Part shown: positions 4,543 through 47,026 of the stretch, one piece after another | Layout of the letters: every line of letters begins with the position of its first letter | How positions within the stretch are numbered: position 1 is the stretch's first letter | Virus record (IMG/VR): IMGVR_UViG_3300032093_000188 | Span: 1 to 53,292 of that record | Length of the DNA stretch: 53,292 nucleotides | From: a virus | Reading direction: 5' to 3' (one strand) | Notes under the pieces: model-generated | Database searches by the model: none | What the model saw: the letters and a program-made list of their open reading frames with translations, nothing else | Told to the model about the DNA's origin: nothing | Program-made: the position numbers and the translations under genes

Positions 4543-4748
4543 GGGTTCAAATCTTTAAGAGCTTCGGGCGACCAGTTTTCATACTCTGTTTCAATCATCT
4601 CAAAGCTCAAGCACTTTCTAATGTCATCGCCGAAAGTTTCGGCGAACGGCCAATTCTTGCGGCAAAAACTCATTTCGCCAGGATTGTAAACGCAATGCTT
4701 ACAATCAGAGCAAATATCATTGTCGGAAATGGAAAGCTGTCGGTTCAT
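4539..4748 (-). CDS. hypothetical Cys-containing protein (69 aa)
   Basis: N-terminal cysteines (CSDCKHCVYN, then SFCRKN) suggest a small metal-binding knuckle. The C-terminal half is acidic. ATGA-coupled to both neighbours. Confidence 0.7.
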   Translation of the reverse strand: MNRQLSISDNDICSDCKHCVYNPGEMSFCRKNWPFAETFGDDIRKCLSFEMIETEYENWSPEALKDLNP

Positions 4749-4978
4749 GGGTTTAGTTTGCGCGCTTTATTCCACTCGTCAAGATTCTTTTCGCAAAGTT
4801 CAATCCAGTCAATCATCGCGTAGTCTCTCATAAGAATGGCCCGTTTCTTTGCTTCAAAGAGAAATTCGGCGTATTGTTTTGGACGGTTTTGGAAATAGAG
4901 GTTGATTTTGTAATAGCGCCAGCCGTTGATTAGGCCAAGATGGCGGATGCAGGATAGGAGGGTTTTGATTCCAGACAT
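4745..4978 (-). CDS. hypothetical helical protein (77 aa)
   Basis: Starts MSGIKTLLSCIRHLGLING and ends CEKNLDEWNKARKLNP; almost entirely helical. First gene behind a near-consensus promoter. Confidence 0.75.
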   Translation of the reverse strand: MSGIKTLLSCIRHLGLINGWRYYKINLYFQNRPKQYAEFLFEAKKRAILMRDYAMIDWIELCEKNLDEWNKARKLNP

Positions 4979-4984
4979 GGCTAT

Positions 4985-5012
4985 ATTATAGGCTATTATT
5001 TTGACCTGTCAA
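4985..5012 (-). promoter_or_regulatory. near-consensus promoter for the gene starting at 4978
   Basis: -35 TTGACA (5007-5012), 16-nt spacer, -10 TATAAT (4985-4990), 6 nt to ATG. Confidence 0.75.
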
Positions 5013-5554
5013 CTCCAAACAAACTCCCCAACGCCAGATTTTTTCTCGACTGAAACAGGTTTATTAACTGGAGCTTCGGCACTTGTAACCAATTCCAACT
5101 TACCTTTGGCCGATTTGTCTTTTTTGAGCCAGATTTCGTGAACGCGGTTTGCCCATTTTGGGCGGCGAAAGTATTTGCCTTGAATTTCGCCCGTTTCTTT
5201 GTGGCGCAAGAAGTACTTGTGTTTGGCGGTATTGTTAACCTTGGATGAGTCATAACAACGCTCTGTACTTGCTCCAATTTCCACGCATACGGATTTCCAT
5301 AGCGCCCCATGTCCGTGGCCCTTTCGGCCATATTTTTTTACCGCCAAAGCGTGGGCGAGTTCGTGCTTTATCGTACTTTCGACTTCCTCAACTGGATTGT
5401 CAAGCGTTAGCCTCCGCGAAAGAAAAATCATCTTCTTTCTGTAGTGACAAAGGCCGAAACGCCTAACCGATTTATCAAAGGCAAACTTCCAATCATTCAA
5501 CCCATGTTCACGCATGAGATTGAGGGCTAACTTGTGAGCGTCTAGTAGGTTCAT
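5009..5554 (-). CDS. SprT-like zinc metalloprotease
   Basis: A 181-aa protein with the SprT/Spartan-type zinc site KHELAHAL (HExxH, residues ~81-88) followed by a second histidine region GHGHGALW ~15 residues later. The N-terminal ~75 residues are an alpha/beta domain as in SprT. The C-terminal part is basic (KYFRRPKWANRVHEIWLKKD) and could bind DNA. The family cleaves DNA-bound or DNA-crosslinked proteins; catalysis here is inferred from motif only. Upstream of the RuvB-like gene's downstream neighbours in a shared minus-strand unit, so a DNA-repair or replication role fits. Confidence 0.8.
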   Translation of the reverse strand: MNLLDAHKLALNLMREHGLNDWKFAFDKSVRRFGLCHYRKKMIFLSRRLTLDNPVEEVESTIKHELAHALAVKKYGRKGHGHGALWKSVCVEIGASTERCYDSSKVNNTAKHKYFLRHKETGEIQGKYFRRPKWANRVHEIWLKKDKSAKGKLELVTSAEAPVNKPVSVEKKSGVGEFVWS

Positions 5555-5555
5555 A

Positions 5556-5753
5556 TTACTTCATAGTCCCATATTTAAGGTAATGCAAGTCCCATTTTTT
5601 ATCGGGCTTGGCGATCATCTTGTTTTCGGTTGATGAATATTGGAGCCAGTTTAATTCTTCTGCTCTTCTGTCAAGGGTAATTGGCATTAAAAACTGCTCA
5701 TATAAAATAACGCCAATTAAAACACCGACATAAATATTAATCAATGTTTTCAT
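5556..5753 (-). CDS. small single-pass membrane protein (65 aa)
   Basis: An N-terminal hydrophobic segment (residues ~4-22, INIYVGVLIGVILYEQFLM) forms one membrane anchor, followed by a soluble charged tail. Start overlaps the stop of the RuvB-like gene by 4 nt. Function unknown. Confidence 0.7.
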   Translation of the reverse strand: MKTLINIYVGVLIGVILYEQFLMPITLDRRAEELNWLQYSSTENKMIAKPDKKWDLHYLKYGTMK

Positions 5754-6685
5754 TTGCCGATCATCTTGATTACTTCTTTGCCTTTTGTGGTTAGCTCGCG
5801 CTTTCCATTAAGGCGGAGAAACCCCTTCTTCAACAAATGATGTTCATGATCTTGGCGCAAAGCTGTTGCTGGAATGCTCAAGCAAGCAGAGATTTCTGTC
5901 AAAGTCATTGGCCCGCGTTCGTCAAGCAATTTAAGAACGCTAATCTCGGTATTGTCCAACCCGTGAACCTTAATATCGACAAGGCCGCTCAAGTTAACGA
6001 AATCCGCCGAATCAAAGGATTTTCGCTTTTTAATGGCGCAAAAGTTTTCAACCTTGCGGGCAATTTGTTCAGCGGCGCGAGGATTTGGCTTGATACTACC
6101 AACCAGTTCTTCCAAGACGTTATCCTCGAATTCAATATCGGGCACGTTTAAGCGAACAATTTCCATGAGTTCTGTTGTTGAATAGGGCGCAAGAGCAATG
6201 ATTTCCATACGACTCTTCAATGGTTTGCCCAACTTGTTAGGATCAGTGGTCGCAAAGTTCATTGACAACTTGCAAAAGTCAAACTCATAGTCTGTGCCGT
6301 CGTGATTAACGCGGCGAACGTGAGACTTTTCTGTATTAAGCAAGGTCAAAAACCACGTTTGAACGCTGCGGGGAAGTTCGTGCGCCTCATCAAAAAGAAT
6401 GCAAACATTTTCCCTATCAAGGATATGCGGCATGTAAACATTATCAATAAACCACTGAACGCTTTTAACGTTCGCAGAGTTAATTTCAATGTATTTGCCC
6501 TTTGTACCTGATTGAGTAATTTCTTTTGCAAAGGAGCGGATAAATGCAGTTTTGCCGTTACCGAACGCAGCGGTAAACAGAATATGTGGCAACGGCTTTC
6601 CAGCCTCTCTTGTTTCAAGATGAAATTGAAGAAGCGATTTCACGGCTGATTGGCCGATTAGATTAGCGAATGGTGTCTTAGTCAT
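5750..6685 (-). CDS. ruvB-like: RuvB-like AAA+ Holliday-junction ATPase
   Basis: 311 aa. N-terminal AAA+ module with Walker A around residues 38-46 (TAAFGNGKT), Walker B CILFDEAHEL (~95-104), sensor-1-like FATTDPNKL and an arginine-finger candidate in KSRMEIIALAPYS. The C-terminal ~75 residues form a winged helix (TLTEISACLSIPATALRQD, LLKKGFLRLNGKRELT) laid out as in bacterial RuvB. RuvB drives branch migration of Holliday junctions with RuvA; no ruvA or ruvC is seen in the window. A clamp-loader-like AAA+ is the main alternative, but the C-terminal winged helix favours RuvB. First gene behind its own promoter. Confidence 0.8.
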   Translation of the reverse strand: MTKTPFANLIGQSAVKSLLQFHLETREAGKPLPHILFTAAFGNGKTAFIRSFAKEITQSGTKGKYIEINSANVKSVQWFIDNVYMPHILDRENVCILFDEAHELPRSVQTWFLTLLNTEKSHVRRVNHDGTDYEFDFCKLSMNFATTDPNKLGKPLKSRMEIIALAPYSTTELMEIVRLNVPDIEFEDNVLEELVGSIKPNPRAAEQIARKVENFCAIKKRKSFDSADFVNLSGLVDIKVHGLDNTEISVLKLLDERGPMTLTEISACLSIPATALRQDHEHHLLKKGFLRLNGKRELTTKGKEVIKMIGK

Positions 6686-12890: not shown

Positions 12891-12919
12891 AAGAGAAGGT
12901 CTTTCTCCCCTATATTACA

Positions 12920-13051
12920 CTAGAATTTCTTAAATTCCGCCCATGCTTTTCTTTTGTTTTGGCGTATATTTTGGGCCGTTTTGGTTTTTTGTGGGCCATT
13001 CCACCACCAGTAGAGGAAGCTAATGACTGACCAGTAGAGAAGTTTTAGCAT
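12920..13051 (-). CDS. small membrane-associated protein (43 aa)
   Basis: ATG at 13051 gives MLKLLYWSVISFLYWWWNGP, an aromatic hydrophobic helix, then a strongly basic tail. Positioned directly upstream of the holin-like gene; a lysis role is possible but unproven. Confidence 0.55.
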   Translation of the reverse strand: MLKLLYWSVISFLYWWWNGPQKTKTAQNIRQNKRKAWAEFKKF

Positions 13052-20241: not shown

Positions 20242-20460
20242 TTATTCTTCTGGAAGTTCTTCTTTTGTTACTCTCAACAAGTCAAAGTCGTCCAATTTTC
20301 GGGCGTTTGCAAGCTCTTTTGCGCGAAGGTCGGTATTTTTTACAGCCCGAACAATAGGGTAAAGGCTTTCGGCGCATTCTGTCACGCGATTTCGGCCCTG
20401 ATTTTGAACCATTTTGGCCCAAGATTGGTCAGCGGGGAGGGATAGGTTGTTATCAAGCAT
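20242..20460 (-). CDS. hypothetical protein (72 aa)
   Basis: ATG at 20460 (MLDNNLSLPADQSWAKMVQN) overlaps the phosphoesterase 3' end by 8 nt. Helical, basic centre. Confidence 0.65.
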   Translation of the reverse strand: MLDNNLSLPADQSWAKMVQNQGRNRVTECAESLYPIVRAVKNTDLRAKELANARKLDDFDLLRVTKEELPEE

Positions 20461-21112
20461 GATGATCTGGAGCGTATAGGGTTTTCTTATCCATGATTTC
20501 ACAAACATCTTTAAACTCGAATAACGGTTTGCCGTGATATTTTAGAGCATTGTCAATTCCAACGTCAAGGAGTTTCATTTCGTCGTTGTAATAATTTGCA
20601 ATTTCAAGGCTTCCGTGGCTATGGCCGCAAACACATCCCCACCCATGTTGCATTCCGTCCCAAATTGTCGGAGCAAAATGATTGCAATAAAATTTTCGCC
20701 TATCAATAGAGACATAAAAAGCATCACCCATCATTGTCACATTTCGGGCAATTTTGAGGGGGTAAATGTCAACATCATCAAATCTTTCGGCCAAATAATT
20801 ATTTTTGGCCCGTTGATAAGAAGTTTTCAATCCCGAATTATGATTGCCCCAACACATATAAGTCTCGCATGGAATAGCATCAAGCAAAGATTGAACCCTT
20901 TCATCGCTTGTGTTAAGCGCAAAATCACCCAAATAAATCAAAAGATCATCTGGTTGAAGAGATAATAGGTTTTTGACTACGAATTCAGTATGGTCTTCCC
21001 ATGAATCAAATCCACGAGGTTTAAAAATAAAGTCTCGCTTGTGATCAATGTGAAAATCAGACGAAAAATAAATATGAGAATAATCTTTGGTTCGGAAATT
21101 TAGCTTTTGCAT
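20453..21112 (-). CDS. calcineurin-like metallophosphoesterase
   Basis: 219 aa with the complete two-metal phosphoesterase signature in order: FSSDFHIDH (DxH), IYLGDFAL (GD), MCWGNHNS (GNH), CNHFAP and CGHSHGS (GHxH). Family members hydrolyse phosphomono- or diesters, including 2',3'-cyclic phosphates and phosphoproteins. It immediately follows an RNA ligase gene (13-nt overlap) and a P-loop kinase, so removal of RNA-end phosphates before ligation is the favoured but inferred role. Confidence 0.85.
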   Translation of the reverse strand: MQKLNFRTKDYSHIYFSSDFHIDHKRDFIFKPRGFDSWEDHTEFVVKNLLSLQPDDLLIYLGDFALNTSDERVQSLLDAIPCETYMCWGNHNSGLKTSYQRAKNNYLAERFDDVDIYPLKIARNVTMMGDAFYVSIDRRKFYCNHFAPTIWDGMQHGWGCVCGHSHGSLEIANYYNDEMKLLDVGIDNALKYHGKPLFEFKDVCEIMDKKTLYAPDHHA

Positions 21113-22179
21113 GTTTGGATGATTAGTTCGGCCAACATTTTATCTGGCATTGGTTTGTTGTCAAGCGCCATGAATGCATAACTTTTGCGCCAGTCGTTAT
21201 ATTTGGCGATAATTTTTGCGGCGGCTTCTTTTCGGGAATCATGTCGAACATCTTCAAGAAACCACGAAACTTTCGCTGAATCTCTAACAATTTGTTTGTG
21301 AGCGTCAACAACTTTTTGAATATCTTTGGCCGCTTGTGTGGCAAGCTCAAAATCCAAACTTTGCTCCACAACCTTAAAAAACTCATCGTAATCCGCCGAT
21401 TTACTGGTTGTCATGTAAAAATCAACCAGATTAGAAATACTGGAAATATGAGATTTAAGACGATGGCGTGAAAGATAGAGGTCGGCCTTAATTTTCTTCA
21501 TCGTTCCAGACTGTTCGTGGTAGAGAACAACTCCCTCCTTATCTTGCCATGCCTTTACGTCGTCTAGGCATTCTTGAACGGATGAGTAAGTGAATTTCTT
21601 AGGACGCTTAACTCCCCAAGATTCGGCCATTACGTCGCAATTATGTTGCGTTTCTAGTCTGGCGCTTTTGTTTTGGATGATTCCGAGGAGGATTAGCTCT
21701 GGCTCGCTTGATTCTCTAATCACAATTACGCGACTTGGAGTGGTCCATTCACAGAGTATCGTATAATTTTCAGAGTCAATATAGCAGTTATTAAATAGAC
21801 TCGGATATTTTTGAATCAAGAAATCAACTTCTTCCGCGCCGTTGTCGTGAATTCGAGCGTCAAAACAACCCCTTGTGCGAAAAATGATTTGGCCGTCAAT
21901 TTTACTTAAAAGAGCCAGCGATCCATCTAGCTTGTGACGAGCCTCAAACTCCCATTCTGGATTCCAAGGTTCAAAATTTGGAGATTCGAGCCAATTCACG
22001 AACTTTGAAAATCCCCTAGAAATTACCCTACCATCCGATTTCCGAATCGCAACAGACCGATAATGTTTGTTCTCGTCGTTCCAATCAACGCCCATATCTT
22101 TTGGCGTAATCAAAACGCAATCGTGGCCGAAGATTTGGCCGTCTTTGTAATTAAACTGGTCGCCGAGTTGTGGGATCAT
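21100..22179 (-). CDS. T4 Rnl1-like RNA ligase
   Basis: 359 aa, close to T4 RNA ligase 1 in length. Nucleotidyltransferase motifs: motif I HKLDGSLALLSK with Lys83 as AMP-accepting residue; motif IIIa-like ILCEWTTPSRVIVI; motif IV KEGVVLYHE; motif V MKKIKADLYLSRH. The family seals 5'-phosphate to 3'-OH RNA ends, classically in tRNA anticodon loops cut by host nucleases. Overlaps the downstream phosphoesterase by 13 nt and the upstream 64-aa gene by 4 nt. Confidence 0.85.
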   Translation of the reverse strand: MIPQLGDQFNYKDGQIFGHDCVLITPKDMGVDWNDENKHYRSVAIRKSDGRVISRGFSKFVNWLESPNFEPWNPEWEFEARHKLDGSLALLSKIDGQIIFRTRGCFDARIHDNGAEEVDFLIQKYPSLFNNCYIDSENYTILCEWTTPSRVIVIRESSEPELILLGIIQNKSARLETQHNCDVMAESWGVKRPKKFTYSSVQECLDDVKAWQDKEGVVLYHEQSGTMKKIKADLYLSRHRLKSHISSISNLVDFYMTTSKSADYDEFFKVVEQSLDFELATQAAKDIQKVVDAHKQIVRDSAKVSWFLEDVRHDSRKEAAAKIIAKYNDWRKSYAFMALDNKPMPDKMLAELIIQTCKS

Positions 22180-25472: not shown

Positions 25473-25651
25473 TTTCTTTCCTGCTCTTGAAAATCGTCCC
25501 AGAGTTTGCGTTGTTTCTTGAATTCGTCCCTAGCCAACACTTCAACATACTCTTTTGAGTCGAGAATATAGTCTTGGGGGATAATGATTTGGCCGTTTAG
25601 AATTCTTTCTTTAATTTCGGCGCGGATTTTGGCTTTGTCGGGGTAGGTCAT
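25454..25651 (-). CDS. hypothetical protein (65 aa in zero frame)
   Basis: MTYPDKAKIRAEIKERILNG start with a charged helical body (EVLARDEFKKQRKLWDDFQE). Coupled to the ligase gene by ATGA. The zero-frame end RKTFAPN may be bypassed by a -1 shift into the next frame. Confidence 0.7.
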   Translation of the reverse strand: MTYPDKAKIRAEIKERILNGQIIIPQDYILDSKEYVEVLARDEFKKQRKLWDDFQEQERKTFAPN

Positions 25652-26655
25652 TTTCTTTGATCGTAATTTAGGGATAAAATCTTGAAGCTTGTTTTGGACG
25701 TATTAACCACAACGCCCTCAAACAATTGGCCGTTTAGGTCGTCCAGTTTAGTGTATTTGTCAACCAGTTCTCTCGTCAAAACAACATCTTTCTCTATAAT
25801 TGGAACAGCGGGCAATCCCAATTCCTCACAAACAAGAGGAAAATAAAACGGCGAATCCTTTCGATGATATTGAAGCGTGTCCAAATCCAAGACAGAGAAA
25901 CACGCCCAATCTAGCGGCAGTTTTGCGTGTGGATTTGTTGGAAAGTTTTGAACGCCATCGCCGTAAATTTCACCGCGCAGGGCTAGGGATTTGTCGTGTT
26001 TTTGACAAAAGGAGAGTAGTTTATCAAGAACCCCATACTTTTCATTAGCTCGGGTGAATCGGTTGGAGCAATCCGTTTTAATTTCCAAGCTGCGAGAGCA
26101 GATTCCAGTCTTCCACTCGTCTCCCACCTTTTTACAGTATAAAGTTGAGCTTTGGCCGTCAATTTTCAACGTAATATCAGAGGTTTCTCCAATTGGAACG
26201 TATTTAAGAGACTGTACGCGATCTTCATCCGTCTTGAAAATGCCATACGGAAGATTGCCTTTGGCATTTAGTTCTTGGGGTTGAGGGGCTTCGTATTTTA
26301 AAATACCGATCAAATGGCCGACTTCTTCCCCAATAGAACAAGTGAAATCTCCAAACTGATCTTCTATAAATTCGGGCGAAAATACCTCATTTGGCGATAC
26401 GATAATTCCGAAGCTCCACTCGCCTCTTATACGCAACGCTTTGACACGTTTTGGCGCGTATTTCTTAAATGTTTCGGCCCAAGGCGTGGAGGGAAGAGTG
26501 CTATCTGGATGAATAAGCACGACAATATCTCCCACTGAGTATTTGTCCTTGGGAATGATGATATTATATCCTCTAACTTTCGCAACCAAAAGCTTGTCGG
26601 CGTTGGAGTGCGGAAGGATTTCTGAGATTCTTTCAATAGTGGCGAGATTGTTCAT
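25648..26655 (-). CDS. RNA ligase of the DRB0094/Rnl5-like family
   Basis: 335 aa. An N-terminal ~120-residue OB-like domain (ATIERISEILPHSNADKLLV, IIIPKDKYSVGDIVVLI) precedes the nucleotidyltransferase domain with motif I TLKIDGQSS (Lys164), motif III-like LALRGEIYGDG, motif IV LFEGVVVN and motif V SFKILSLNYD. The N-terminal OB fold plus C-terminal ligase domain is the layout of Deinococcus DRB0094-type ligases, which seal 3'-OH RNA to 5'-phosphate ends. A second RNA ligase besides the Rnl1-like one. First gene of its unit, divergent from the sulfation pair. Confidence 0.85.
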   Translation of the reverse strand: MNNLATIERISEILPHSNADKLLVAKVRGYNIIIPKDKYSVGDIVVLIHPDSTLPSTPWAETFKKYAPKRVKALRIRGEWSFGIIVSPNEVFSPEFIEDQFGDFTCSIGEEVGHLIGILKYEAPQPQELNAKGNLPYGIFKTDEDRVQSLKYVPIGETSDITLKIDGQSSTLYCKKVGDEWKTGICSRSLEIKTDCSNRFTRANEKYGVLDKLLSFCQKHDKSLALRGEIYGDGVQNFPTNPHAKLPLDWACFSVLDLDTLQYHRKDSPFYFPLVCEELGLPAVPIIEKDVVLTRELVDKYTKLDDLNGQLFEGVVVNTSKTSFKILSLNYDQRK

Positions 26656-37431: not shown

Positions 37432-37946
37432 ATGCTGTGTTTGATTTTGTATAAGTCTTCTGTTTTGATAATGGACAGCAAATCGCGCCGCCCGAATCTC
37501 TTGTAACCATTATACAACGCCTTTTTGGCCGAGTCAACACGATTTTCGAGATTGCACAGTTTTTTTGCCAATTCCAGCAATTCTTTCCTCGAAACAATAA
37601 CAAATTCGTTCTCTAATTCAAAAGCAATTGTTGTTGCGCCCTTTTCTTCCTTTGTAAGCCAGCCCTCTCCGCCGTTGCCATTACGAAATTCCAGCCACAA
37701 AATGGTGTAATCTACATTTTCGTCCGTTCTTTTCTTGCGTTTGGCTCCTTTTACGTCGATTCTCCACTCTTCTTTCCCCTTTGAAAGAATGAAATCTACA
37801 TGAGAAAACTGTTCTTCACGACGGGCCACCCTTACGGAATAGCCTTTTTCTTCGGCCAATTTCTTAAAAACTACCTCGGCGGAAAATCCCATCTCCCCGC
37901 AGCCGTGTTTGTCTAGTGCGTGTTTGAATTTTTTGTGTTCAATCAT
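37416..37946 (-). CDS. putative PD-(D/E)XK nuclease-like protein (176 aa)
   Basis: ATG at 37946 (MIEHKKFKHALDKHGCGEMG). GFSAEVVFKKLAEEKGYSVR helix (possible catalytic Glu), then HVDFILSKGKEEWRIDVKGAK, where Asp and DVK fit the D...(D/E)xK nuclease core. The C-terminal part is helical and basic (ALYNGYKRFGRRDLLSI). Substrate unknown; assignment rests on this short motif. Confidence 0.6.
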   Translation of the reverse strand: MIEHKKFKHALDKHGCGEMGFSAEVVFKKLAEEKGYSVRVARREEQFSHVDFILSKGKEEWRIDVKGAKRKKRTDENVDYTILWLEFRNGNGGEGWLTKEEKGATTIAFELENEFVIVSRKELLELAKKLCNLENRVDSAKKALYNGYKRFGRRDLLSIIKTEDLYKIKHSIWPKN

Positions 37947-38440
37947 AGTTTCAAGTAAAAGCAATCTCCCGTTTGTTTCGCCCCGAGTCTCTTCATTAGC
38001 CGCTCAAATGGTTTTCGGCGGAATTCCCTGTTTTGGTTCCAAGCTACAACGTCATAACTGTATTTTTCCTTCAATCGGCGGAAAAACTCTTGCAGCATTT
38101 TTATAGAATCGTATGGGTCTAGGGTTTTTTCTGATGCGCCCATAATCATTGTCGCCAATTTACCAGCGGGTAAGGTTGCGGTTGGGTCGTCCAGCCAGCT
38201 TTTCCCATCTCCAAAAATCACAAATCGGCCATTTTTCTCTAGAAAACACAGGTTATTCTCAAAATTCCGCCGAAAATAGTCAAAAATCTTGTCGTGTCGG
38301 CCCGACAACGAGCCTTTTCCCAATTCGGGCAACGGCGGACTTTTCAGGCAAAAGGTTTTCCAAATTTCTAGAACCTTCTTTTCTTTCGCGAAAAAGCTGC
38401 CGTTAATATAAAACTCTTCGATAGTTTGACATTTATTCAT
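37943..38440 (-). CDS. putative GNAT-fold protein (165 aa)
   Basis: ATG at 38440 (MNKCQTIEEFYINGSFFAKE) overlaps the TnpB stop as ATGAATAA. The C-terminus (PFERLMKRLGAKQTGDCFYL) resembles that of the clear GNAT protein at 49392-49835 (LKKLYQKLGLKQDGVCWLKL), and an upstream helix EFFRRLKEKYSYDVVAWNQN fits alpha4. Acetyltransferase activity is not shown. Confidence 0.6.
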   Translation of the reverse strand: MNKCQTIEEFYINGSFFAKEKKVLEIWKTFCLKSPPLPELGKGSLSGRHDKIFDYFRRNFENNLCFLEKNGRFVIFGDGKSWLDDPTATLPAGKLATMIMGASEKTLDPYDSIKMLQEFFRRLKEKYSYDVVAWNQNREFRRKPFERLMKRLGAKQTGDCFYLKL

Positions 38441-39632
38441 CTTTAAGAGATGTTGTTTTCGATGCTCGCGCTTTCGTTTTACTGCTTCGTTGTGTCCTGC
38501 CCCGAAGAACGTAGTTCTTCGTTGGTCTTCCGTCCACTCCACAGTCTGACACCGCTTGTCCAGCGGCCAAAATGTTTTTCGCGGCGTTCACGTCTCTGTC
38601 GTGGCTTGCGCCGCAAGCGCCACACGTCCATTGCCTTATTTCTAGGCCAAAGCTAGCCTTCGCTCCACAACATGAGCAGGTTTTGCTACTTGGGAACCAA
38701 CGATCTACGATTAGTAGTTCTCGCCCATACCACTCGCACTTGTATTCAAGTATAGTTCTGAATTCGCGCCAGCCTTGCTCGCTAATTACGCGAGAAAGTT
38801 TGCGGTTCTTGACCATACTTGACACAGACAAGTCTTCCAAAGCAATCGCTTGGTTTTCGCGAACGAGTTGAGTTGACAATTTGTGGAGGAAATCTTTGCG
38901 CACATCTGCGATGCGCTGGTGAACACGGGCAACTTTTTTGCGGGCGCGTTCACGGTTTTTAGAACCTTTCTTTTTGCGAGAGTGACGCCTTTGCAGGCGT
39001 GCTAGTTTCTTGCGCAATTTACGAATCGCTTTCGGAGATTGAAATTTTCGCCCGTCTGAGAGAGTTGCGAAGTTTTCAATACCAGCGTCGATACCGATTC
39101 GTTTGTCGGAAGGCGGAAGTTTGGCAATTTCCTCCTCGCATAGGAATGAGGCAAACCATTGACCGCTAGCATTTTGAGAAACGGTTACTGAATTTGGGAT
39201 ATTGGAAAGCGGGCGCGACCAAACGACTTTAAAGGGTGTTTTAATCTTCGCGAGAAAAAGATAGTCGCCTTTTAGGCGGAAAGCGTTATCTGTGAACCGC
39301 GCAGAACCGCCATTTTTGCGAGCTTTAAACGAGGGATACGCGGCGCGTTTCTTGAAGAAATTGCCGAACGCAACATCTAAATTATTCAAACTTTGCTGCA
39401 AGCAAACGCTCGACACTTCATTAAGCCAAGCCTTTTCGGGAGAGCCTTTTAACTCCGTCAACGCCTTGCACGATTTGGCGTAGTTTATGGATTTCTTCTC
39501 TTTAACCCACGCCTCTCTTCTCTGTGCTAGCGCCCAATTATAGACAAATCTGCACGATCCAATTGTTTTGCGTAGAACAGCCTCTTGTTCTGGCGCTGGA
39601 TAGATACGAAATTTATAACCGCGATGATTCAC
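38433..39632 (-). CDS. tnpB: TnpB (IS200/IS605-type RNA-guided nuclease), standalone
   Basis: 399 aa, GTG start at 39632. N-terminal helix-turn-helix (GYKFRIYPAPEQEAVLRKTI, CRFVYNWALA), then RuvC motifs: Asp in IGIDAGIENFATLSDG, Glu in AIALEDLSVSSM, a CSCCGAK...CGACGASH zinc finger, and Asp in DRDVNAAKNIL. All catalytic residues are present, so the protein is likely active. TnpB is an RNA-guided DNA nuclease normally encoded beside TnpA; no TnpA is present here. It sits exactly at the junction between the minus-strand array and the plus-strand late operon. Codons are richer in GC than its neighbours. Confidence 0.92.
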   Translation of the reverse strand: MNHRGYKFRIYPAPEQEAVLRKTIGSCRFVYNWALAQRREAWVKEKKSINYAKSCKALTELKGSPEKAWLNEVSSVCLQQSLNNLDVAFGNFFKKRAAYPSFKARKNGGSARFTDNAFRLKGDYLFLAKIKTPFKVVWSRPLSNIPNSVTVSQNASGQWFASFLCEEEIAKLPPSDKRIGIDAGIENFATLSDGRKFQSPKAIRKLRKKLARLQRRHSRKKKGSKNRERARKKVARVHQRIADVRKDFLHKLSTQLVRENQAIALEDLSVSSMVKNRKLSRVISEQGWREFRTILEYKCEWYGRELLIVDRWFPSSKTCSCCGAKASFGLEIRQWTCGACGASHDRDVNAAKNILAAGQAVSDCGVDGRPTKNYVLRGRTQRSSKTKARASKTTSLKDE

Positions 39633-39652
39633 TCTAAATATATTACACTAAT

Positions 39653-39667
39653 TGTTAAAAAATAACA
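39653..39667. repeat. perfect hairpin, candidate left-end element of the TnpB unit
   Basis: TGTTA-AAAAA-TAACA, 5-bp perfect stem, 21 nt upstream of the TnpB start. IS605-type elements carry terminal hairpins; whether this one is used is unknown. A matching 5-bp hairpin (CATCT-CTTAA-AGATG) spans the TnpB stop codon on the minus strand. Confidence 0.4.
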
Positions 39668-39720
39668 TAGAACTTTTTAAATATCTTATTTTTACTATTC
39701 CAAAGCGTGGTTAGTGTGCC

Positions 39721-39750
39721 TTTACAGTGTAACTCACTATCAAGGATAAC
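39721..39750 (+). promoter_or_regulatory. candidate late promoter/operator before the tail operon
   Basis: Contains the palindrome TTACAGTGTAA (39722-39732) and a possible TTTACA-18-GATAAC pair ending 11 nt before the gpL start at 39762. No strong sigma70 match, so a phage-specific factor may be needed. The rest of 39633-39761 is AT-rich without a gene. Confidence 0.35.
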
Positions 39751-39761
39751 GGTTTAAACTC

Positions 39762-40691
39762 ATGGCTCTATCAGAAAAAAGCAAAAGAAACTTGCTGCAA
39801 ATCGCCCCAAGCGCGGTGGTGAATCTCTATAGGCTTTACTATGATACGTTGCAAGAACCCGAAAATTACTTTCCCTTTGTAAATGGCACGAATGGTTTTA
39901 ATGGGTCAATCGTTTTCGGGGGAATCAGATATTCTCCTATTGCCGCCGAAATTGACTCCACGGAAACCAACATCCAGCAACGAATTTCTCGCCCAAAAAT
40001 CCGAATTTCCAACGTTGGAGGACAAATTTCTCAACTTTTGCGCCGAAAAAATGAATTTCGTAACGCTAAAATTGTGATAATCAAAACAATGGTTCGGTGT
40101 TTGGATGCTGAAAACTTTGACGCTGGCACAAACCCATACGGAATTCCAGACCCAAACGGCATTCTTTCTCGTGAGGAATATGTTGTTTCTCAAAAGACTG
40201 GCGAAAACAAGGAACTTGTGGAGCTTGAGCTAACTTATCCATTTGACCTTGAGAGCTTTAACATTGCGGGGAAAACCATTATTGCAAACTATTGTCCCTT
40301 CCAGTATCGTGGCAAAGGATGCAATTATTGTGGTCCTCCAATTTGCAAATCCGACGATTCTGATTTCTCCTCGCCATTCACGGGTGATTTTGAGCTAAAA
40401 TCGGCGCGAAACCTTTGGGTAAACGGTGAAACATACCAGCGAGGTGCTTGCGTTTACGTTGAAAACTACAAAAATCCGCCAAAAACATTTTTCGTTTGCA
40501 TTGCCAGCCACGTTTCCAGCCCAACAAATCATCCAAACCAGCCAAACGGCTCTCTCTATTGGGAGAAAGACGAGTGCTCAAAAACAATCACTGGCTGCAA
40601 AAAGCGCTTCATGGACGATCCAACAAACCTTTGCTACAAGGGTTATCTTCCTTTCGGCGGGTATCCTGCAACCAACAAATATCGGTTTTAA
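39762..40691 (+). CDS. L: minor tail protein L (gpL-like, Fe-S cysteine set)
   Basis: 309 aa. N-terminal YYDTLQEPENYFPFVNG-type sheet domain, and a C-terminal part with the gpL cysteine pattern: NYCPFQYRGKGCNYCG, later KTITGCKKRFMDD and the closing LPFGGYP motif. In lambda gpL sits at the tail tip and its cysteines hold a 4Fe-4S cluster. First gene of the plus-strand operon; its TAA overlaps the next start (TAATG). Confidence 0.9.
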   Translation: MALSEKSKRNLLQIAPSAVVNLYRLYYDTLQEPENYFPFVNGTNGFNGSIVFGGIRYSPIAAEIDSTETNIQQRISRPKIRISNVGGQISQLLRRKNEFRNAKIVIIKTMVRCLDAENFDAGTNPYGIPDPNGILSREEYVVSQKTGENKELVELELTYPFDLESFNIAGKTIIANYCPFQYRGKGCNYCGPPICKSDDSDFSSPFTGDFELKSARNLWVNGETYQRGACVYVENYKNPPKTFFVCIASHVSSPTNHPNQPNGSLYWEKDECSKTITGCKKRFMDDPTNLCYKGYLPFGGYPATNKYRF

Positions 40692-41056
40692 TGATTAAAC
40701 AATTGATAACAGCTTCAAAAACTAGCCCAATGGCCGAAATCTGCGGGTTTATTGGCTTTGACGGCAAAGAGTTTTTGTTTAAGCAAATGCACAACCACAA
40801 TCCAGAGCCAAACAAGTATTTTTCTATTTCGCCACTGGATTATTTAAAGTTTAAAAACGAGTATATTTTCGTGGCCGTGTTTCATTCTCATATAAACAGT
40901 GGTTGTGAGCCTAGCGAATTTGACTTGGCAAACTCTAAGAATTGCGCGTTGCCTTTTTTAGTTTACTCTATTCCAGAAAACAAGTTTCACTTGCATGTTC
41001 CTGAAAACAGCGAAGTGAACGAAAACCTTTTAGAGGAGTTTGGAAAGCTGTTATGA
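40691..41056 (+). CDS. K: tail assembly protein K-like, JAB/MPN domain only
   Basis: 121 aa from ATG at 40691. JAMM zinc motif: Glu in MAEICGFIGF and FHSHINSGCEPSEFD (HxH...SxxD). Lambda gpK joins this domain to an NlpC/P60 peptidase; here the second domain is absent. Position between L and I is the expected one. Likely acts in tail-tip maturation. Confidence 0.85.
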   Translation: MIKQLITASKTSPMAEICGFIGFDGKEFLFKQMHNHNPEPNKYFSISPLDYLKFKNEYIFVAVFHSHINSGCEPSEFDLANSKNCALPFLVYSIPENKFHLHVPENSEVNENLLEEFGKLL

Positions 41057-41730
41057 CCACCGTTTTCATTCATGGTTATTTGGGCCAAAAATATGGCAAA
41101 AAACACTGCTTTTCGCTTTCCAAACCAAGAGATGTGTTTAGGGCTTTAGAGTGTTCTTTCGAGGGGTTCAACAAAGAAATTATTGAATTGGGCAAAAATG
41201 GTTGCCAATACACTCTTGTTGTTGATGACAGGGAGCTTTCCAACGAAAATGACTTGTCCGTTGTTTCAAAAATGAAAACAATTCACATTGTTCCCACGAT
41301 TTTTGGCGCTGGCGTAGCAGCGTTGGTTGTGGGCGCTCTTGCAGCAATTGGCGGCGTTGCGCTCGGCGGAACAGCAACACTAATCGGGTCAATGCTTTTG
41401 GCTGTGGCATTTTCGGCCATTTCTTTTGGTTTGCAAAGCCTCCTAACAAAACCGCCACAAGCAAATGCCATTTCTCAAAGCAACCCCAACCAATCAACTG
41501 CCGCAACCAGTGCAACAAGCAAGTCGTTCCTTTTCTCAAACAGAGAAAACGTTGCATCTCAAGGGAATCCTATTCCTCTCGCCTATGGAAGACTCCGCGT
41601 AGGAAGCGCTATTATCCAAGAAAACATCAAAAGTTACCCAAACAGCGTAAGCACTTTTGATGAATTTGCCTCCCAAAGCCTTGAAGAGGGTCAAAGTTAC
41701 ATGAGCATTGTCCACAACCAGCAAATTTAA
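41053..41730 (+). CDS. I: tail assembly protein I (gpI-like)
   Basis: 225 aa. An N-terminal ubiquitin-like ~75-residue domain (TTVFIHGYLGQKYGKKHCFS) is followed by a Gly/Ala-rich hydrophobic stretch (AALVVGALAAIGGVALGG) and the hallmark end FSNRENVASQGNPIPLAYGR. Required with gpJ for tail-tip assembly in lambdoid phages. Overlaps K by 4 nt and J by 1 nt. Confidence 0.9.
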   Translation: MTTVFIHGYLGQKYGKKHCFSLSKPRDVFRALECSFEGFNKEIIELGKNGCQYTLVVDDRELSNENDLSVVSKMKTIHIVPTIFGAGVAALVVGALAAIGGVALGGTATLIGSMLLAVAFSAISFGLQSLLTKPPQANAISQSNPNQSTAATSATSKSFLFSNRENVASQGNPIPLAYGRLRVGSAIIQENIKSYPNSVSTFDEFASQSLEEGQSYMSIVHNQQI

Positions 41731-44700
41731 TGCAGCACTTTTTAAACAAAAAATCAATTATCGAGGGTGCTGGAAGAAGGGGCGGAGATGTCAGCATAAG
41801 CATTCCTCCGCCAGCGCCGCCGCCGCCAGCAGAATTGCAGCCACCAAAACTAGGCGCTCTTCAAAGTTTGGCAAGTTATTCTTACGCCGAAAACATTGAC
41901 CTGATTTCAGACGGGCCTATTGACGGACTCGTTAATCAAAACGGCCAATATGTTCAAGGCCATCGCATTTTTGAGGGCATTTACTTTGACGATGTTCCTG
42001 TTAAGAAAAGCATTGATGCAAGCTATACTGGCACAAGCGCCGTGGCAAGTGCGGAATTTTCCCTGACTGGATTAGCGAATAATCTTTACAGTTTATGGTT
42101 TAGATCGGGAAGTTTTAATGAAAAAAATTTCACTGGAGCAGCCAGTGTCAACGCAACTGGCGGAACAGAATTTTTAACAGGCAGATACGGGCCAAGTGTT
42201 TTAAAAACACGCTCTTATTTTGCAAATCATGCGTCCGTTAACGATCCATACACATGTTTAACATATTCTCCAGTCTCTTCGAGCGGCGATATTGGAAATA
42301 TTTTCGAGTGTCCAACTTCTGTTGTTCGGGACAACTCTTTTGAAATCACATGGGAGAGAGACGACATTGCCAAAAGCATTTACAAGTCCATAGACCTTAT
42401 TGCCACGGTTGCAGAATCGCCTGCTGGATTCGGCGTTGACGCTTCTCAAAACGCTTCGGCGAAAAAGCTGAGATTCAATTATAACAGTTGGGTCGATGTA
42501 AAGAATAACGTTCTCTCTTTTGACGAGACAAAAGACGATTCTGAGTATCCGTTTTTCGCCGTAAAAATCAATTTTGGAGAACCTTTCGATGAGACGGTTC
42601 AAAACGACTGCTCAAACACGGTTGCAATTTTTCAAACACCAGAAAAGACGCAAACTGTGTCTTCTGATTTTGTCGTTGACGAATATACAAATTGTGTATT
42701 GCTTGAGGATGTTCGGAATCAAGCGTTCCAAAGGTTGGAAATTGACGATTTGACTTCGGCCAAGAAGTTTGGCGCGATGAATTATATTGATTTAACCTAT
42801 GTTAGAAAAACGTCATCAACTGTTGTTGAAATCGGCGGATCAATAATTTTGTTTGGGGCCAAAAATGGCGACGGCCCAACTCAAGAAAGCGTTCAAGCAA
42901 TTAAAGATTTCGTGTCCAAGCTTGTTGTATTGAACTATGCAAATGAAAAATACAACTATAACAATGTTCTGGCGGAGGCAAGAATGGGCGATGAATTTCA
43001 GACGCCGCTCTCTTATTTCAGAAAAGTTTATATTTCAAAAGAATATGGCGTAAAATTAGCTGGCCCGTTCAATGTCGGCGGATCAATTTTCCGCGTTTCA
43101 AACTTTGGTGATGCAAATGGTTTTTCGACTCTCGGATACTCTGAGATACCTTTGGCCGAAAATGCTTCTGGAGAAGGTTCAACAGACAATCGTAGCGGCA
43201 AAAGCTTTTCGAGCTATGCTGGAAACAATAAATCAACTTACGTTGAGAGCGCAATTCCCATTGTTCACGTCATTGAAAACAGCAATGTTGACAGGGTGTA
43301 TTTAACAATTGGTGTTCGCGCCCTTTCCGATACAAACCAAATAGACCAAAGTTTAAATGGAATCGGAAGCGTTCAAGCTGGCGCAAAACTACCAACAGCA
43401 GTAAGATTTACTGTTGAATGGGGTCTTCAAGACTCTTTTGGTCGAGAGGTTGAGTCAACCGTCCAAAAAAGAGTTTACCAGATTAGCGGTATTGCTGATA
43501 ATGCTGTGCTTGTTGACATTGGCCGCGAAGAAAATTCGTCTATTTTATCTAAATATTCATTTGTGGCCGCGTCAAATTCGGGCGGAGCGCTAAACGCATC
43601 TTCTGGAATTGTTCTGCCAAGTGTTGAATCTGGTAAAAAACGATTCGTTCGCGTCACAAGAACAACCCATGAATCTAGCTCCGTCTTGGTTCGCCGTGAA
43701 ATTTCACTAGAAAAAGTGACTGAAATAATCAGTACATCATTCTCTTACCCAAATTCGGCGATTATCGGCACGAAAATTGACAGCCGAAACATTTCACAAA
43801 TTCCGCCGCGTTCCTACGACGCAAGACTGAAAAGGGTTTTTGTTCCAAGTAACTATTTCCCCCTCAAACCAAACGGCGAAGACAAGCGAAGGTATAGAAC
43901 TCAAGAGGATTTTAGCGCTGCAACTGCCAGCGATTTGCAAATTTACAGGGGAAATTGGGACGGCACATTCAAAGAGCTATGGACTGATAATCCAGCTTGG
44001 GTGTTGTTTGACCTGTTGATTAATCAAGAGTATGGCCTTGGAAACTTTCTTGACCCAAGACAAATCAACGTTTGGGAGCTTTATAAAATCGGCCAATTCT
44101 GTGATGCCGTGGATAAAAACGGTGTGTTTGTTGGTGTTCCAAACGCTTTTGGCGGCAAAGAGCCAAGATATTCAATTAACATTATTTTGGGCGACAGAAC
44201 TGATGTTTTTCAAACAATTAATTCAATTGCCGCGTCTTTCAGGGGCAGTATTTTTTATCACAATGGAGAGGTTAACTTCGCCGACGACAGGCTAAAAGTT
44301 CCAGCTTTTGAGTTTTCAAACTCAAACGTCAAAGAAGGGATTTTCTCTTATTCTTCGTCTCGCCGCGATCAAGAGTTTAACGTGGTTGAAGTGGCCTACT
44401 TGGACGAAAACGACGACTTTAAAAGTAAGGTTGAATACGTTGAAAACGTGGAAAGTATTCGTAAAAGAGGCGTTCTCAAAACAACCTACGATTCTTTTGG
44501 AGTAACGTCTAAAACGCTGGCGAATAGAATCGGCCAACATATTCTTTACGGGACAACCGACGAAAATGAAAGTGTCAGCTTTACGGCTGGAATGGACGCT
44601 TTGATTGTCAAACCTGGAGATTTGATTAATGTAAACGACGAACTCAAAACCCAACAAAAAAACTTTGGCCGCGTTTTGTCAATCGACCCAGACTCTAGAA

Positions 44701-45794
44701 CGGTCAGATTAAATGAAAAATTCCAAAGTGGGGTATTTTTGGGCGAATTAACCCTTGTTTCGCCAAGCGGCGGCAAAAGTTGGGACGAAATGTATGGCAA
44801 AGCTCGTTACAGCGGTGGATTGTCTTTTGAAGACATATACACTAACGATGTACCTAGCATCCAAAGCTACAAAATTACTGGATATGATAATTCGCCCGAA
44901 TATGGTTGCAATGTTTATTTGTCTCCGCGCCAAGAATATCAGCAAATTTTAGTAACTGGAATTCAACAGTCTGGAGTTGCTGGCCCGAGAACTGGATTGT
45001 ATTCTGGAATTGGAACAAGCGGCGGATACACTTTGTTTTCTGGGATTAATGCCACAACTGGTTACAGCATATCGAGAAGCGGAACGTACTGGTATTTGCG
45101 GGCAGTCAAGTCTGGCATCGTTATTACAAGTGGATCACCAAACACGTCTTTCCCGACAGGAGTTTGGGCAACTGGCGGAGTTGTTGATTACACCTCAGTT
45201 GACAATCCAAACTTGGATTTCTTGCATAATGTTCAAGTTGGAACACCATATTCCGTTTCTGTTTCTGGCGTGCCTAAAGAAGTTTATAAAATTGCCAGCA
45301 TTCGAGAAATCGCGCCGAATGAGTTTGAAATGGCCGCTATCAAATTTAACTCTGGCAAGTTTGCAGAAATTGAGGCAGCGCAAAACTTGAACGACTTTTA
45401 CGATACATTCTCGTTCATTCAGCGGCCAAAACTCAACACTTCATCATCAATCGTTGAAAATTATCAGTTAAACGATGTTGTTATAACCGCATTTTCCAGC
45501 GGAAATTTCGGCGGAACAAGTGTCGTTGACCTGTCTGGATCATGGAATCCTGTTGTTGGAGCAAGTAGTTATTATGTTACGCTGTCGAAACCAAATGGTT
45601 CAAGAGTGACATCCTCAACAGAAACAAATAACTATGTCCTGCTAGACCAAGAGCAAGTTGGCTTTTACAGGCTGTCCGTGAGTGCTAAAAACCAAAGCTT
45701 GGGATACACCTCAAGAACTTCATCAACTGGAGTAACGATTTTGCCTAGCGCCAGCTTAATTACGCCCCACATTACCAACATTTCAATCGCCTAA
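41730..45794 (+). CDS. J: central tail fibre / host-specificity protein J (gpJ)
   Basis: 1354 aa. N-terminal DLISDGPIDGLVNQNGQYVQ block (residues ~55-75), two large middle domains, and the family signature NPAWVLFDLLINQEYGLGNF with WELYKIGQFCDAV around residues 750-790. Later come the fibronectin-type domain boundary FAEIEAAQNLNDFYD and Ig/Fn-like repeats to the end. gpJ forms the tail tip and contacts the receptor; the C-terminal domains usually set host range. The longest gene in the window. Confidence 0.95.
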   Translation: MQHFLNKKSIIEGAGRRGGDVSISIPPPAPPPPAELQPPKLGALQSLASYSYAENIDLISDGPIDGLVNQNGQYVQGHRIFEGIYFDDVPVKKSIDASYTGTSAVASAEFSLTGLANNLYSLWFRSGSFNEKNFTGAASVNATGGTEFLTGRYGPSVLKTRSYFANHASVNDPYTCLTYSPVSSSGDIGNIFECPTSVVRDNSFEITWERDDIAKSIYKSIDLIATVAESPAGFGVDASQNASAKKLRFNYNSWVDVKNNVLSFDETKDDSEYPFFAVKINFGEPFDETVQNDCSNTVAIFQTPEKTQTVSSDFVVDEYTNCVLLEDVRNQAFQRLEIDDLTSAKKFGAMNYIDLTYVRKTSSTVVEIGGSIILFGAKNGDGPTQESVQAIKDFVSKLVVLNYANEKYNYNNVLAEARMGDEFQTPLSYFRKVYISKEYGVKLAGPFNVGGSIFRVSNFGDANGFSTLGYSEIPLAENASGEGSTDNRSGKSFSSYAGNNKSTYVESAIPIVHVIENSNVDRVYLTIGVRALSDTNQIDQSLNGIGSVQAGAKLPTAVRFTVEWGLQDSFGREVESTVQKRVYQISGIADNAVLVDIGREENSSILSKYSFVAASNSGGALNASSGIVLPSVESGKKRFVRVTRTTHESSSVLVRREISLEKVTEIISTSFSYPNSAIIGTKIDSRNISQIPPRSYDARLKRVFVPSNYFPLKPNGEDKRRYRTQEDFSAATASDLQIYRGNWDGTFKELWTDNPAWVLFDLLINQEYGLGNFLDPRQINVWELYKIGQFCDAVDKNGVFVGVPNAFGGKEPRYSINIILGDRTDVFQTINSIAASFRGSIFYHNGEVNFADDRLKVPAFEFSNSNVKEGIFSYSSSRRDQEFNVVEVAYLDENDDFKSKVEYVENVESIRKRGVLKTTYDSFGVTSKTLANRIGQHILYGTTDENESVSFTAGMDALIVKPGDLINVNDELKTQQKNFGRVLSIDPDSRTVRLNEKFQSGVFLGELTLVSPSGGKSWDEMYGKARYSGGLSFEDIYTNDVPSIQSYKITGYDNSPEYGCNVYLSPRQEYQQILVTGIQQSGVAGPRTGLYSGIGTSGGYTLFSGINATTGYSISRSGTYWYLRAVKSGIVITSGSPNTSFPTGVWATGGVVDYTSVDNPNLDFLHNVQVGTPYSVSVSGVPKEVYKIASIREIAPNEFEMAAIKFNSGKFAEIEAAQNLNDFYDTFSFIQRPKLNTSSSIVENYQLNDVVITAFSSGNFGGTSVVDLSGSWNPVVGASSYYVTLSKPNGSRVTSSTETNNYVLLDQEQVGFYRLSVSAKNQSLGYTSRTSSTGVTILPSASLITPHITNISIA

Positions 45795-47026
45795 TGTACA
45801 CTTTCCAACAAATTTATAACAAGGCAACTCCACCAGCAGTTGGCGAAGGAAGCGGCATTTGTATTCCAGAAGACGCTACACTAACAATTTCAGCCCTTGA
45901 CAAGTATAATCAAACCGTTAACACTCGTTCTCAATATGGTGGACAGAATAATCTTACGTTTGATGTTGACGTTCGATACACTAACGGCTCTTTTGCTCCA
46001 AGCGGGGCGAATTTTGAAACGGGATTAATCGGTCCAACTTATGTTTTCTCAAAAGAGAAAAACATTCAAGCATTCAGCGGTGATCCTCAAAGAGCTTATC
46101 GTTTAACGTTTAAATTGAGAGAGCAATCGCCCACTTCAATGTCTAGCGGGAGATACACAATTTATCACAACGCTGCCGTTGTCAGCGGATTTTCAGGCGT
46201 TTTGGATGGAACAAGCGGCCCAAACAGACAAACTGGCAAGATTGATATTAGCTTGTATATGAGCGGCGCAGATTATTATGATGTTTCTAAATTTGAAATT
46301 TATTCGGGGGCGTCTCCTAGTTTCTCAGTAGTAACGGGAACTGGCGCTGGCGCAAACTTGCTAAAAAGCATTAGCATTTTTGAACAAAAAACCGCCTACA
46401 CCTTGACAATTAATGAGGGCGAGCAACCAGTTGATGGTAATTATTACCATTATAAGATTTTGCCGTATGACAACTTTGGATCGGGCGTTTTATTTACTGG
46501 CTATGCAAGCGGATTAATGTATAATGGAGAAATAGCGTCTCCGCCGATTAATAACTTGACGGGCCGTTCTGTTGTAATTTTACAGGATGGAGCGTATTGT
46601 ATTCATACTCTTCATACTGGCACAATTGTTGGATCGGATTATCAAATCTTGGATGTTGTGGCTAACATTTCTGGCAACATGAGAACTGGTGAGTATTATA
46701 ATCCTAATTTAAGCTCTTCAATTTCTCAAAGTGAGACTTATCCCTTCCGCACAATCAAATACACGGCCCAATTAACAGACGCGAGTGGTTTCTGCTCATC
46801 TAGGGAGATTCTGATTACAGACAATACTTTGTCAAGGATTTCGGGCCATTCTGGATTAAGCGTTTCTGAATACGCCGTTTCCGACACTGGAAACTTTACA
46901 AGGATTCTTGTTTCGGGCGAAGGAACTGGAATTTCTGATTACACTCGCGGCACGGGATATATTTATTTAATGGCTCAACTACAAAACCCTAACGGTCAAT
47001 ACAAACTTTGGAGGACTATTCTTTGA
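45794..47026 (+). CDS. tail-tip/fibre protein (410 aa), probable receptor-contact part
   Basis: Starts MYTFQQIYNKATPPAVGEGS one base into the gpJ stop (TAATG). Beta-rich throughout, high in Ser/Thr/Gly/Tyr (YTIYHNAAVVSGFSGVLDGT), as in fibre proteins. Position directly after J suggests it extends the gpJ fibre or is a separate receptor-binding subunit. No known domain. Confidence 0.75.
   Translation: MYTFQQIYNKATPPAVGEGSGICIPEDATLTISALDKYNQTVNTRSQYGGQNNLTFDVDVRYTNGSFAPSGANFETGLIGPTYVFSKEKNIQAFSGDPQRAYRLTFKLREQSPTSMSSGRYTIYHNAAVVSGFSGVLDGTSGPNRQTGKIDISLYMSGADYYDVSKFEIYSGASPSFSVVTGTGAGANLLKSISIFEQKTAYTLTINEGEQPVDGNYYHYKILPYDNFGSGVLFTGYASGLMYNGEIASPPINNLTGRSVVILQDGAYCIHTLHTGTIVGSDYQILDVVANISGNMRTGEYYNPNLSSSISQSETYPFRTIKYTAQLTDASGFCSSREILITDNTLSRISGHSGLSVSEYAVSDTGNFTRILVSGEGTGISDYTRGTGYIYLMAQLQNPNGQYKLWRTIL

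What the first reader, a model, noticed from the sequence alone, without database searches (positions are those of the whole stretch)
38433..39762. Lone, intact TnpB at the early/late gene boundary
TnpB keeps all three RuvC acidic residues and its zinc finger but has no TnpA. It sits between the minus-strand array and the plus-strand tail operon, and its stop overlaps the start of the downstream gene. Hairpins occur at both ends (39653-39667 and over the stop codon). It may have been adopted as an RNA-guided nuclease or regulator.
Basis: partly seen in the sequence, partly recalled or inferred. Interest (0 to 1): 0.6.

Follow-up and report, generated by a model that had tools for sequence, protein, structure and literature searches.

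The report
Stranded phage TnpB, nuclease still intact
A phage carries a small transposon-derived gene for an RNA-guided DNA cutter (TnpB) that landed in the first codons of a phage gene and seems to have lost the end it needs to jump, yet keeps an intact nuclease and guide-RNA region, so it most likely survives by cutting relatives that lack it at that spot; this is a tidy example of a known kind.

Summary
The TnpB is real and intact, but it lies on the MINUS strand (39632→38433, 399 aa), and the gene whose start its stop overlaps is the minus-strand gene 38440→37943, not a tail gene. A related 165-kb phage contig has the same locus without it. That comparison defines a 1,303-bp IS200/IS605 TnpB-only element (38426–39728, ±2 bp) with IS608-type termini: TTAC on the left, TCAA on the right. 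It inserted about three codons into the downstream gene. Its right end now supplies a candidate in-frame ATG overlapping the tnpB stop, which explains the overlap that looked like adoption. Six other copies form one clade (100/100) found only in viral contigs; three sit in that relative. Most keep end hairpins. The window copy has no detectable left-end hairpin and a shortened right one, so it is probably immobile. Yet tnpB is under strong constraint (dN/dS ≈0.09), all RuvC/zinc residues are kept, and a guide-RNA scaffold with compensatory base changes spans its 3′ end. Best reading: an RNA-guided homing/retention nuclease aimed at empty alleles of its own site. No matching target was found and no activity is shown. 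New member of a known kind; modest interest.

The parts
38426..39728 (-). Whole TnpB-only IS200/IS605-type element (1,303 bp, +/-2 bp at the ends)
   Evidence: Absent from the homologous locus of a related phage contig, L166
39729..39732 (-). TTAC flanking the left end: insertion target and presumed TAM
   Evidence: TTAC present in the empty relative L166 (GAGTTACAC); IS608 inserts 3' of TTAC (PMC5934647)
39676..39728 (-). Left-end tip without a detectable hairpin
   Evidence: Fold z-score -0.63; other copies have a stem here
39639..39649 (-). AGTGTAATATA, block conserved before the tnpB start in the copies; possible promoter -10
   Evidence: Exact or nearly exact in all seven copies; promoter role is inference
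38433..39632 (-). tnpB, 399 aa, GTG start, intact RuvC triad and zinc finger
   Evidence: dN/dS 0.089 against L158
38426..38590 (-). Predicted guide-RNA (omega-RNA/reRNA) scaffold over the tnpB 3' end and the right end
   Evidence: 8 pairs with compensatory changes, covariation 0.183 against 0.088 in shuffles
38439..38453 (-). Shortened right-end hairpin CATCT/AGATG over the tnpB stop
   Evidence: 5-bp remainder of the stem seen in other copies
38426..38429 (-). TCAA, right cleavage site at the right end
   Evidence: All seven copies end in ATGTCAA; same as IS608 CR
38406..38425 (-). Predicted guide ACTATCGAAGAGTTTTATAT
   Evidence: Sequence directly 3' of TCAA; only match within 3 mismatches in the window; guide role by analogy with ISDra2
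37943..38440 (-). Interrupted phage gene (165 aa, unknown function) with a candidate new ATG start in the right end, overlapping the tnpB stop by 8 nt
   Evidence: Homologue in L166 reads VSYTFEAFNING... at the start; no Pfam/PHROG match

Best explanation
A TnpB-only IS200/IS605-type element inserted 3' of a TTAC about three codons into a phage gene and has since probably lost the left-end structure that TnpA needs, so it is now effectively fixed. Its tnpB and the overlapping guide-RNA scaffold are still maintained. The 3' end of the transcript should be processed into an RNA whose guide is the first ~16-20 nt of the interrupted gene. The RNP would cut TTAC-flanked empty alleles in co-infecting close relatives or in element-less replicas, and repair from the element-bearing copy would copy the element in (homing/retention). 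The donor is spared because its guide match is preceded by TCAA, not TTAC. Shown by sequence: insertion, ends, intact nuclease, constraint, scaffold covariation. Inferred: guide-RNA production, TTAC as TAM, cleavage, homing, immobility, and use of the new start codon.
For: Empty site in a related phage. IS608-type termini TTAC/TCAA and GAAT/AAAG-like guide tetranucleotides across copies. Intact RuvC triad and zinc finger. dN/dS 0.089; window branch 30 synonymous and 9 nonsynonymous codon changes. Scaffold covariation. Left-end hairpin missing and left tip 50% identical to L158 while most of tnpB is above 75%. Homing/gene-drive action of TnpB is demonstrated in plasmids (PMC11870625).
Against: No empty allele that the present guide would match was found: exact-pattern scan gave none and L166 differs at 7 of the first 16 guide positions. 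Only three phage lineages inform the site. The constraint cannot be dated to after the insertion, so part of it may stem from an earlier mobile phase. The right-end stem is shortened, which might weaken the guide RNA.
Confidence: 0.6

Rival explanations
1. A still-mobile TnpB-only IS mobilised in trans by a TnpA from the host or another element; the left end works although its hairpin is unrecognisable.
For: Three diverged copies at different sites in one phage contig and others elsewhere show that the family moves; TTAC and an AAAG six bases inside are retained; no TnpA in any record, so movement must be in trans.
Against: No hairpin at the left end (fold z -0.63), right-end stem down to 5 bp and GAAT changed to GAAA.
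Confidence: 0.2
2. A dying passenger: the element is immobile and tnpB merely has not yet broken.
For: Degenerate ends; no matching target found; the element is identical in the three near-identical records, so its recent fate cannot be read.
Against: dN/dS 0.089 at a synonymous divergence near 1, with the window branch as constrained as its sister; guide scaffold pairs kept by double changes shared with L158.
Confidence: 0.12
3. TnpB adopted as a regulator of phage or host genes.
For: Placed at the divergent junction of two gene blocks with its stop overlapping the next gene; apparently immobile yet conserved; phage TldRs are a precedent for TnpB-derived regulators (PMC13418256).
Against: RuvC is intact, unlike TldR; the guide is simply the flanking DNA, with no second match within 3 mismatches in the window; the overlap is explained by the insertion point.
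Confidence: 0.08

Closest known systems
IS608 (ISHp608) of Helicobacter pylori, IS200/IS605 family
   Same: Insertion 3' of TTAC, right end TCAA; in sister copies GAAT before the right hairpin and AAAG/AAAA before the left hairpin
   Different: No tnpA; window copy lacks a left-end hairpin; some sister copies appear to use TTAT
ISDra2 TnpB of Deinococcus radiodurans (RNA-guided nuclease)
   Same: Aligned over residues 3-356 with the same catalytic triad and zinc finger; guide RNA overlaps the 3' end of tnpB and the right end (PMC8612924)
   Different: TTAC rather than TTGAT as target; no partner TnpA; activity not shown here
TldR, phage-encoded TnpB-like nuclease-dead repressors
   Same: TnpB-derived gene lodged in a phage genome without tnpA
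   Different: RuvC triad intact here; guide is the donor flank, with no second target found
Phage homing endonucleases (free-standing, T-even type; from general knowledge)
   Same: Would act on element-less alleles of co-infecting relatives
   Different: Target set by an RNA guide; protein family unrelated; homing not shown here

Membership tests
TnpB RNA-guided nuclease (IS200/IS605 type) | TnpB domains with intact RuvC triad and zinc finger | tested here: met
   Pfam above cut-offs; residues aligned to ISDra2 TnpB
TnpB RNA-guided nuclease (IS200/IS605 type) | Structured guide RNA overlapping the tnpB 3' end and the right end | tested here: met
   As sequence and covariation only; the RNA itself was not observed
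TnpB RNA-guided nuclease (IS200/IS605 type) | TAM-dependent RNA-guided cleavage | not testable with these tools
   Needs biochemistry
IS200/IS605 element, IS608-like ends | Insertion 3' of a short target (TTAC) without target duplication; right end TCAA | tested here: met
   Occupied versus empty site; TCAA in all copies
IS200/IS605 element, IS608-like ends | Subterminal hairpins at both ends | tested here: not met
   Window: left hairpin missing, right one shortened to 5 bp; present in L158, L160, L178 and others. Hence called a degenerate derivative of such an element, not a complete one
IS200/IS605 element, IS608-like ends | Y1 transposase TnpA in the element (absent by definition in TnpB-only derivatives) | tested here: not met
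   No PF01797 match in the window or related records
IS607 TnpB with RAGATH-18 reRNA | RAGATH-18 RNA above threshold, outside the coding sequence, and a serine-recombinase TnpA | tested here: not met
   22.7 bits against a cut-off of 44.9, inside the coding sequence; no PF00239 match; family description in PMC11061315
TldR regulator | Inactivated RuvC nuclease site | tested here: not met
   All three acidic residues present

The most novel reading that the evidence does not exclude
A virus-restricted TnpB lineage in which the nuclease has outlived transposition: in this phage the immobilised TnpB works as a free-standing, RNA-guided homing endonuclease that marks and excludes close relatives at a conserved gene start, as protein homing endonucleases do in T-even phages.
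Probability: 0.3. Interest if true: 0.6.

Novelty: new member of a known kind. Interest (0 to 1): 0.35.

Why it matters
It offers a clean occupied/empty site pair plus six sister copies for asking whether TnpB can persist by homing alone once transposition is lost. It also shows how an IS200/605 right end can furnish a candidate new start codon to the gene it interrupts, so that gene overlap is not by itself a sign of adoption.

Tried and rejected
Plus-strand reading of the finding's coordinates: 20 stops. RAGATH-18/IS607 assignment: sub-threshold and no serine recombinase. A weak HgcC Rfam hit in L160 (24 bits against 50) was set aside as below threshold. Search for exact empty alleles of the window site and of the L178 site in viral contigs: none. 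Guides of the sister copies against the window: no 20-nt match better than 3 mismatches, and none of the hits listed is preceded by TTAC/TTAT. Clean empty sites for the L158 and L160 copies in the window: flanks homologous but not tight. Rejoining the flanks restores a long ORF on both sides only for L178; in the window the rejoined ORF runs 13 codons upstream and 160 downstream, and the other copies give nothing beyond shifted controls. Regulator reading: no second guide match in the window. Structure prediction was not run because sequence homology to solved TnpBs is unambiguous. The host was not identified.

Full report
Observation. The window is a 53,292-bp linear virus record. The tnpB ORF lies on the minus strand, 39632 (GTG) to 38433 (TAA), 399 aa. 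Pfam recognises HTH_OrfB_IS605, OrfB_IS605 and Cas12f1-like_TNB. It aligns with ISDra2 TnpB over residues 3–356 (E=1.8e-78), with D182, E266 and D347 at the positions of D191, E278 and D361 and both CxxC pairs present. No Y1 or serine TnpA was found in the window or related records, while the control genomes rang.

Empty site. Contig G003 (165 kb) carries a homologous locus. Window 37956–38409 and 39727–46670 align to adjacent stretches of L166 (5498–5951 and 5966–12927), and the 1.3 kb between is missing there. On the minus strand the window reads GAGTTAC|ACTGTAAAGG…ATGTCAA|ACTATCGAAGAG and the empty relative GAGTTAC|ACCTTCGAGGCA. L169, a more distant relative, also lacks the element and has TTTACAC at the site. 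The element is therefore 38426–39728 (1,303 bp; 2-bp ambiguity). The identical element sits at the same site in two other near-identical records, L002 (99.9%) and L003 (99.5%).

Effect on the neighbour. In L166 the downstream gene reads VSYTFEAFNINGKF…; rejoining the window flanks gives VSYTIEEFYINGSF…. If GTG is the native start, the insertion lies after codon 3 and separated the old start from the gene. The right end now carries ATG AAT AAA TGT CAA in frame, giving MNKCQTIEEFYING…, and this ATG overlaps the end of tnpB by 8 nt. The gene remains an intact 165-aa ORF; the 160 residues compared are 63% identical to the relative, with pN 0.22 and pS 0.79. Use of this ATG is inferred; the same frame stays open further upstream within tnpB, to a GTG at 38542.

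Family of elements. Seven distinct copies were compared: window; L158, L160 and L161 (all three in G003); L159; L174; L178. Lengths are 1,293–1,321 bp. They form a 100/100-supported clade of viral-contig sequences only. The best cellular hit among 84,980 species was about 53% identical, and the best phage, plasmid and viral-contig relatives outside the clade were at most about 55%. The better-preserved copies end GAAT–hairpin–…ATGTCAA. A TTAC or TTAT lies 95–117 nt before every start codon: L158 has TTAC with AAAG at the hairpin foot, while L160, L161, L174 and L178 have TTAT with AAAA. This is in line with base-pairing recognition in IS608 (CL TTAC, CR TCAA, GL AAAG, GR GAAT; PMC5934647). Joining at TTAT and TCAA restores an uninterrupted ORF around L178. 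The TTAT assignments for the other copies rest on position and pattern, not on an empty site.

Decay of ends versus constraint on the gene. The window's left end has no hairpin (fold z −0.63; L158 −2.7, L160 −3.2, L161 −1.7, L174 −1.1, L159 −0.3). The L161 and L174 z-scores are modest, but their stems align with those of L158, L160 and L178. L159 also looks degenerate. The outermost 60 bp of the window element is 50% identical to L158, against 61–98%, mostly above 75%, over the rest. Its right-end stem is down to 5 bp, partly through compensated changes. In contrast dN/dS for tnpB is 0.089 against L158, and changes assigned to the window branch are 30 synonymous and 9 nonsynonymous. That comparison excludes the part of the gene overlapping the guide RNA. 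It cannot say how much of the constraint postdates the insertion.

Guide RNA. On a 171-column alignment of the 3′ ends, a structure with an enclosing stem (ACTGT/GCAGT in the window; CCTGT/GCAGG and CGTGC/GCACG elsewhere), a long CGAAGAAC hairpin and the right-end hairpin has 95.9% paired cells, 8 pairs with compensatory changes and a covariation score of 0.183, against 0.088±0.017 in shuffles and at most 0.058 when slid. Seven related sequences are few, and the structure was partly derived from them. A blastn of the whole element against known phages finds only this ~80-nt region, in Alicyclobacillus and Microcystis phages (75–79% identity), which fits extra constraint on the RNA. A RAGATH-18 match is sub-threshold (22.7 against 44.9 bits). 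That family belongs to IS607 TnpBs, whose guide RNA lies outside the gene (PMC11061315), so IS607 membership is rejected.

Mechanism. By analogy with ISDra2 (PMC8612924) the guide would be 38425→38406, ACTATCGAAGAGTTTTATAT. The only match within 3 mismatches in the window is the donor site, preceded by TCAA. Empty alleles would carry TTAC. L166 has the TTAC but differs at 7 of the first 16 guide positions (read from the alignment), so it is unlikely to be cut; no matching empty allele was found. Homing or retention, shown for IS200/605 TnpB in plasmids (PMC11870625), is the best-supported reading but is inferred here. A TldR-like regulator (PMC13418256) is disfavoured by the intact RuvC site.

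Verdict. A real, well-delimited, probably immobilised IS200/605 TnpB-only element with a conserved nuclease; ordinary in kind, useful as a test case.

Noticed in passing
window 39639-39649 and 12911-12921 (minus strand); G003 53349, 83453, 111256, 115494: AGTGTAATATA sits just before the tnpB start in most copies, with no clear ribosome-binding site between (possible leaderless transcript), and recurs exactly once elsewhere in the window, before GGGGAG and an ATG; it may be a shared promoter.
   Followed up: partly
L177 (G003 111273-116698): Two diverged tnpB copies lie about 4 kb apart, and a third elsewhere on the same 165-kb phage contig, each with a different predicted guide and with no TnpA on the contig.
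   Followed up: partly
L178 (element 4594-5902 of the reversed locus): A sister element interrupts what looks by eye like an FkbM-type methyltransferase gene; rejoining the flanks at TTAT and TCAA restores one open frame (150 codons left, 44 right).
   Followed up: partly
window 20453-22179 and 25648-26655 (minus): Two different RNA-ligase families (phrog_562 and phrog_968) are encoded about 3.5 kb apart, with a phosphoesterase next to the first; possibly an RNA-repair set, although no tRNA gene was found in the window.
   Followed up: no
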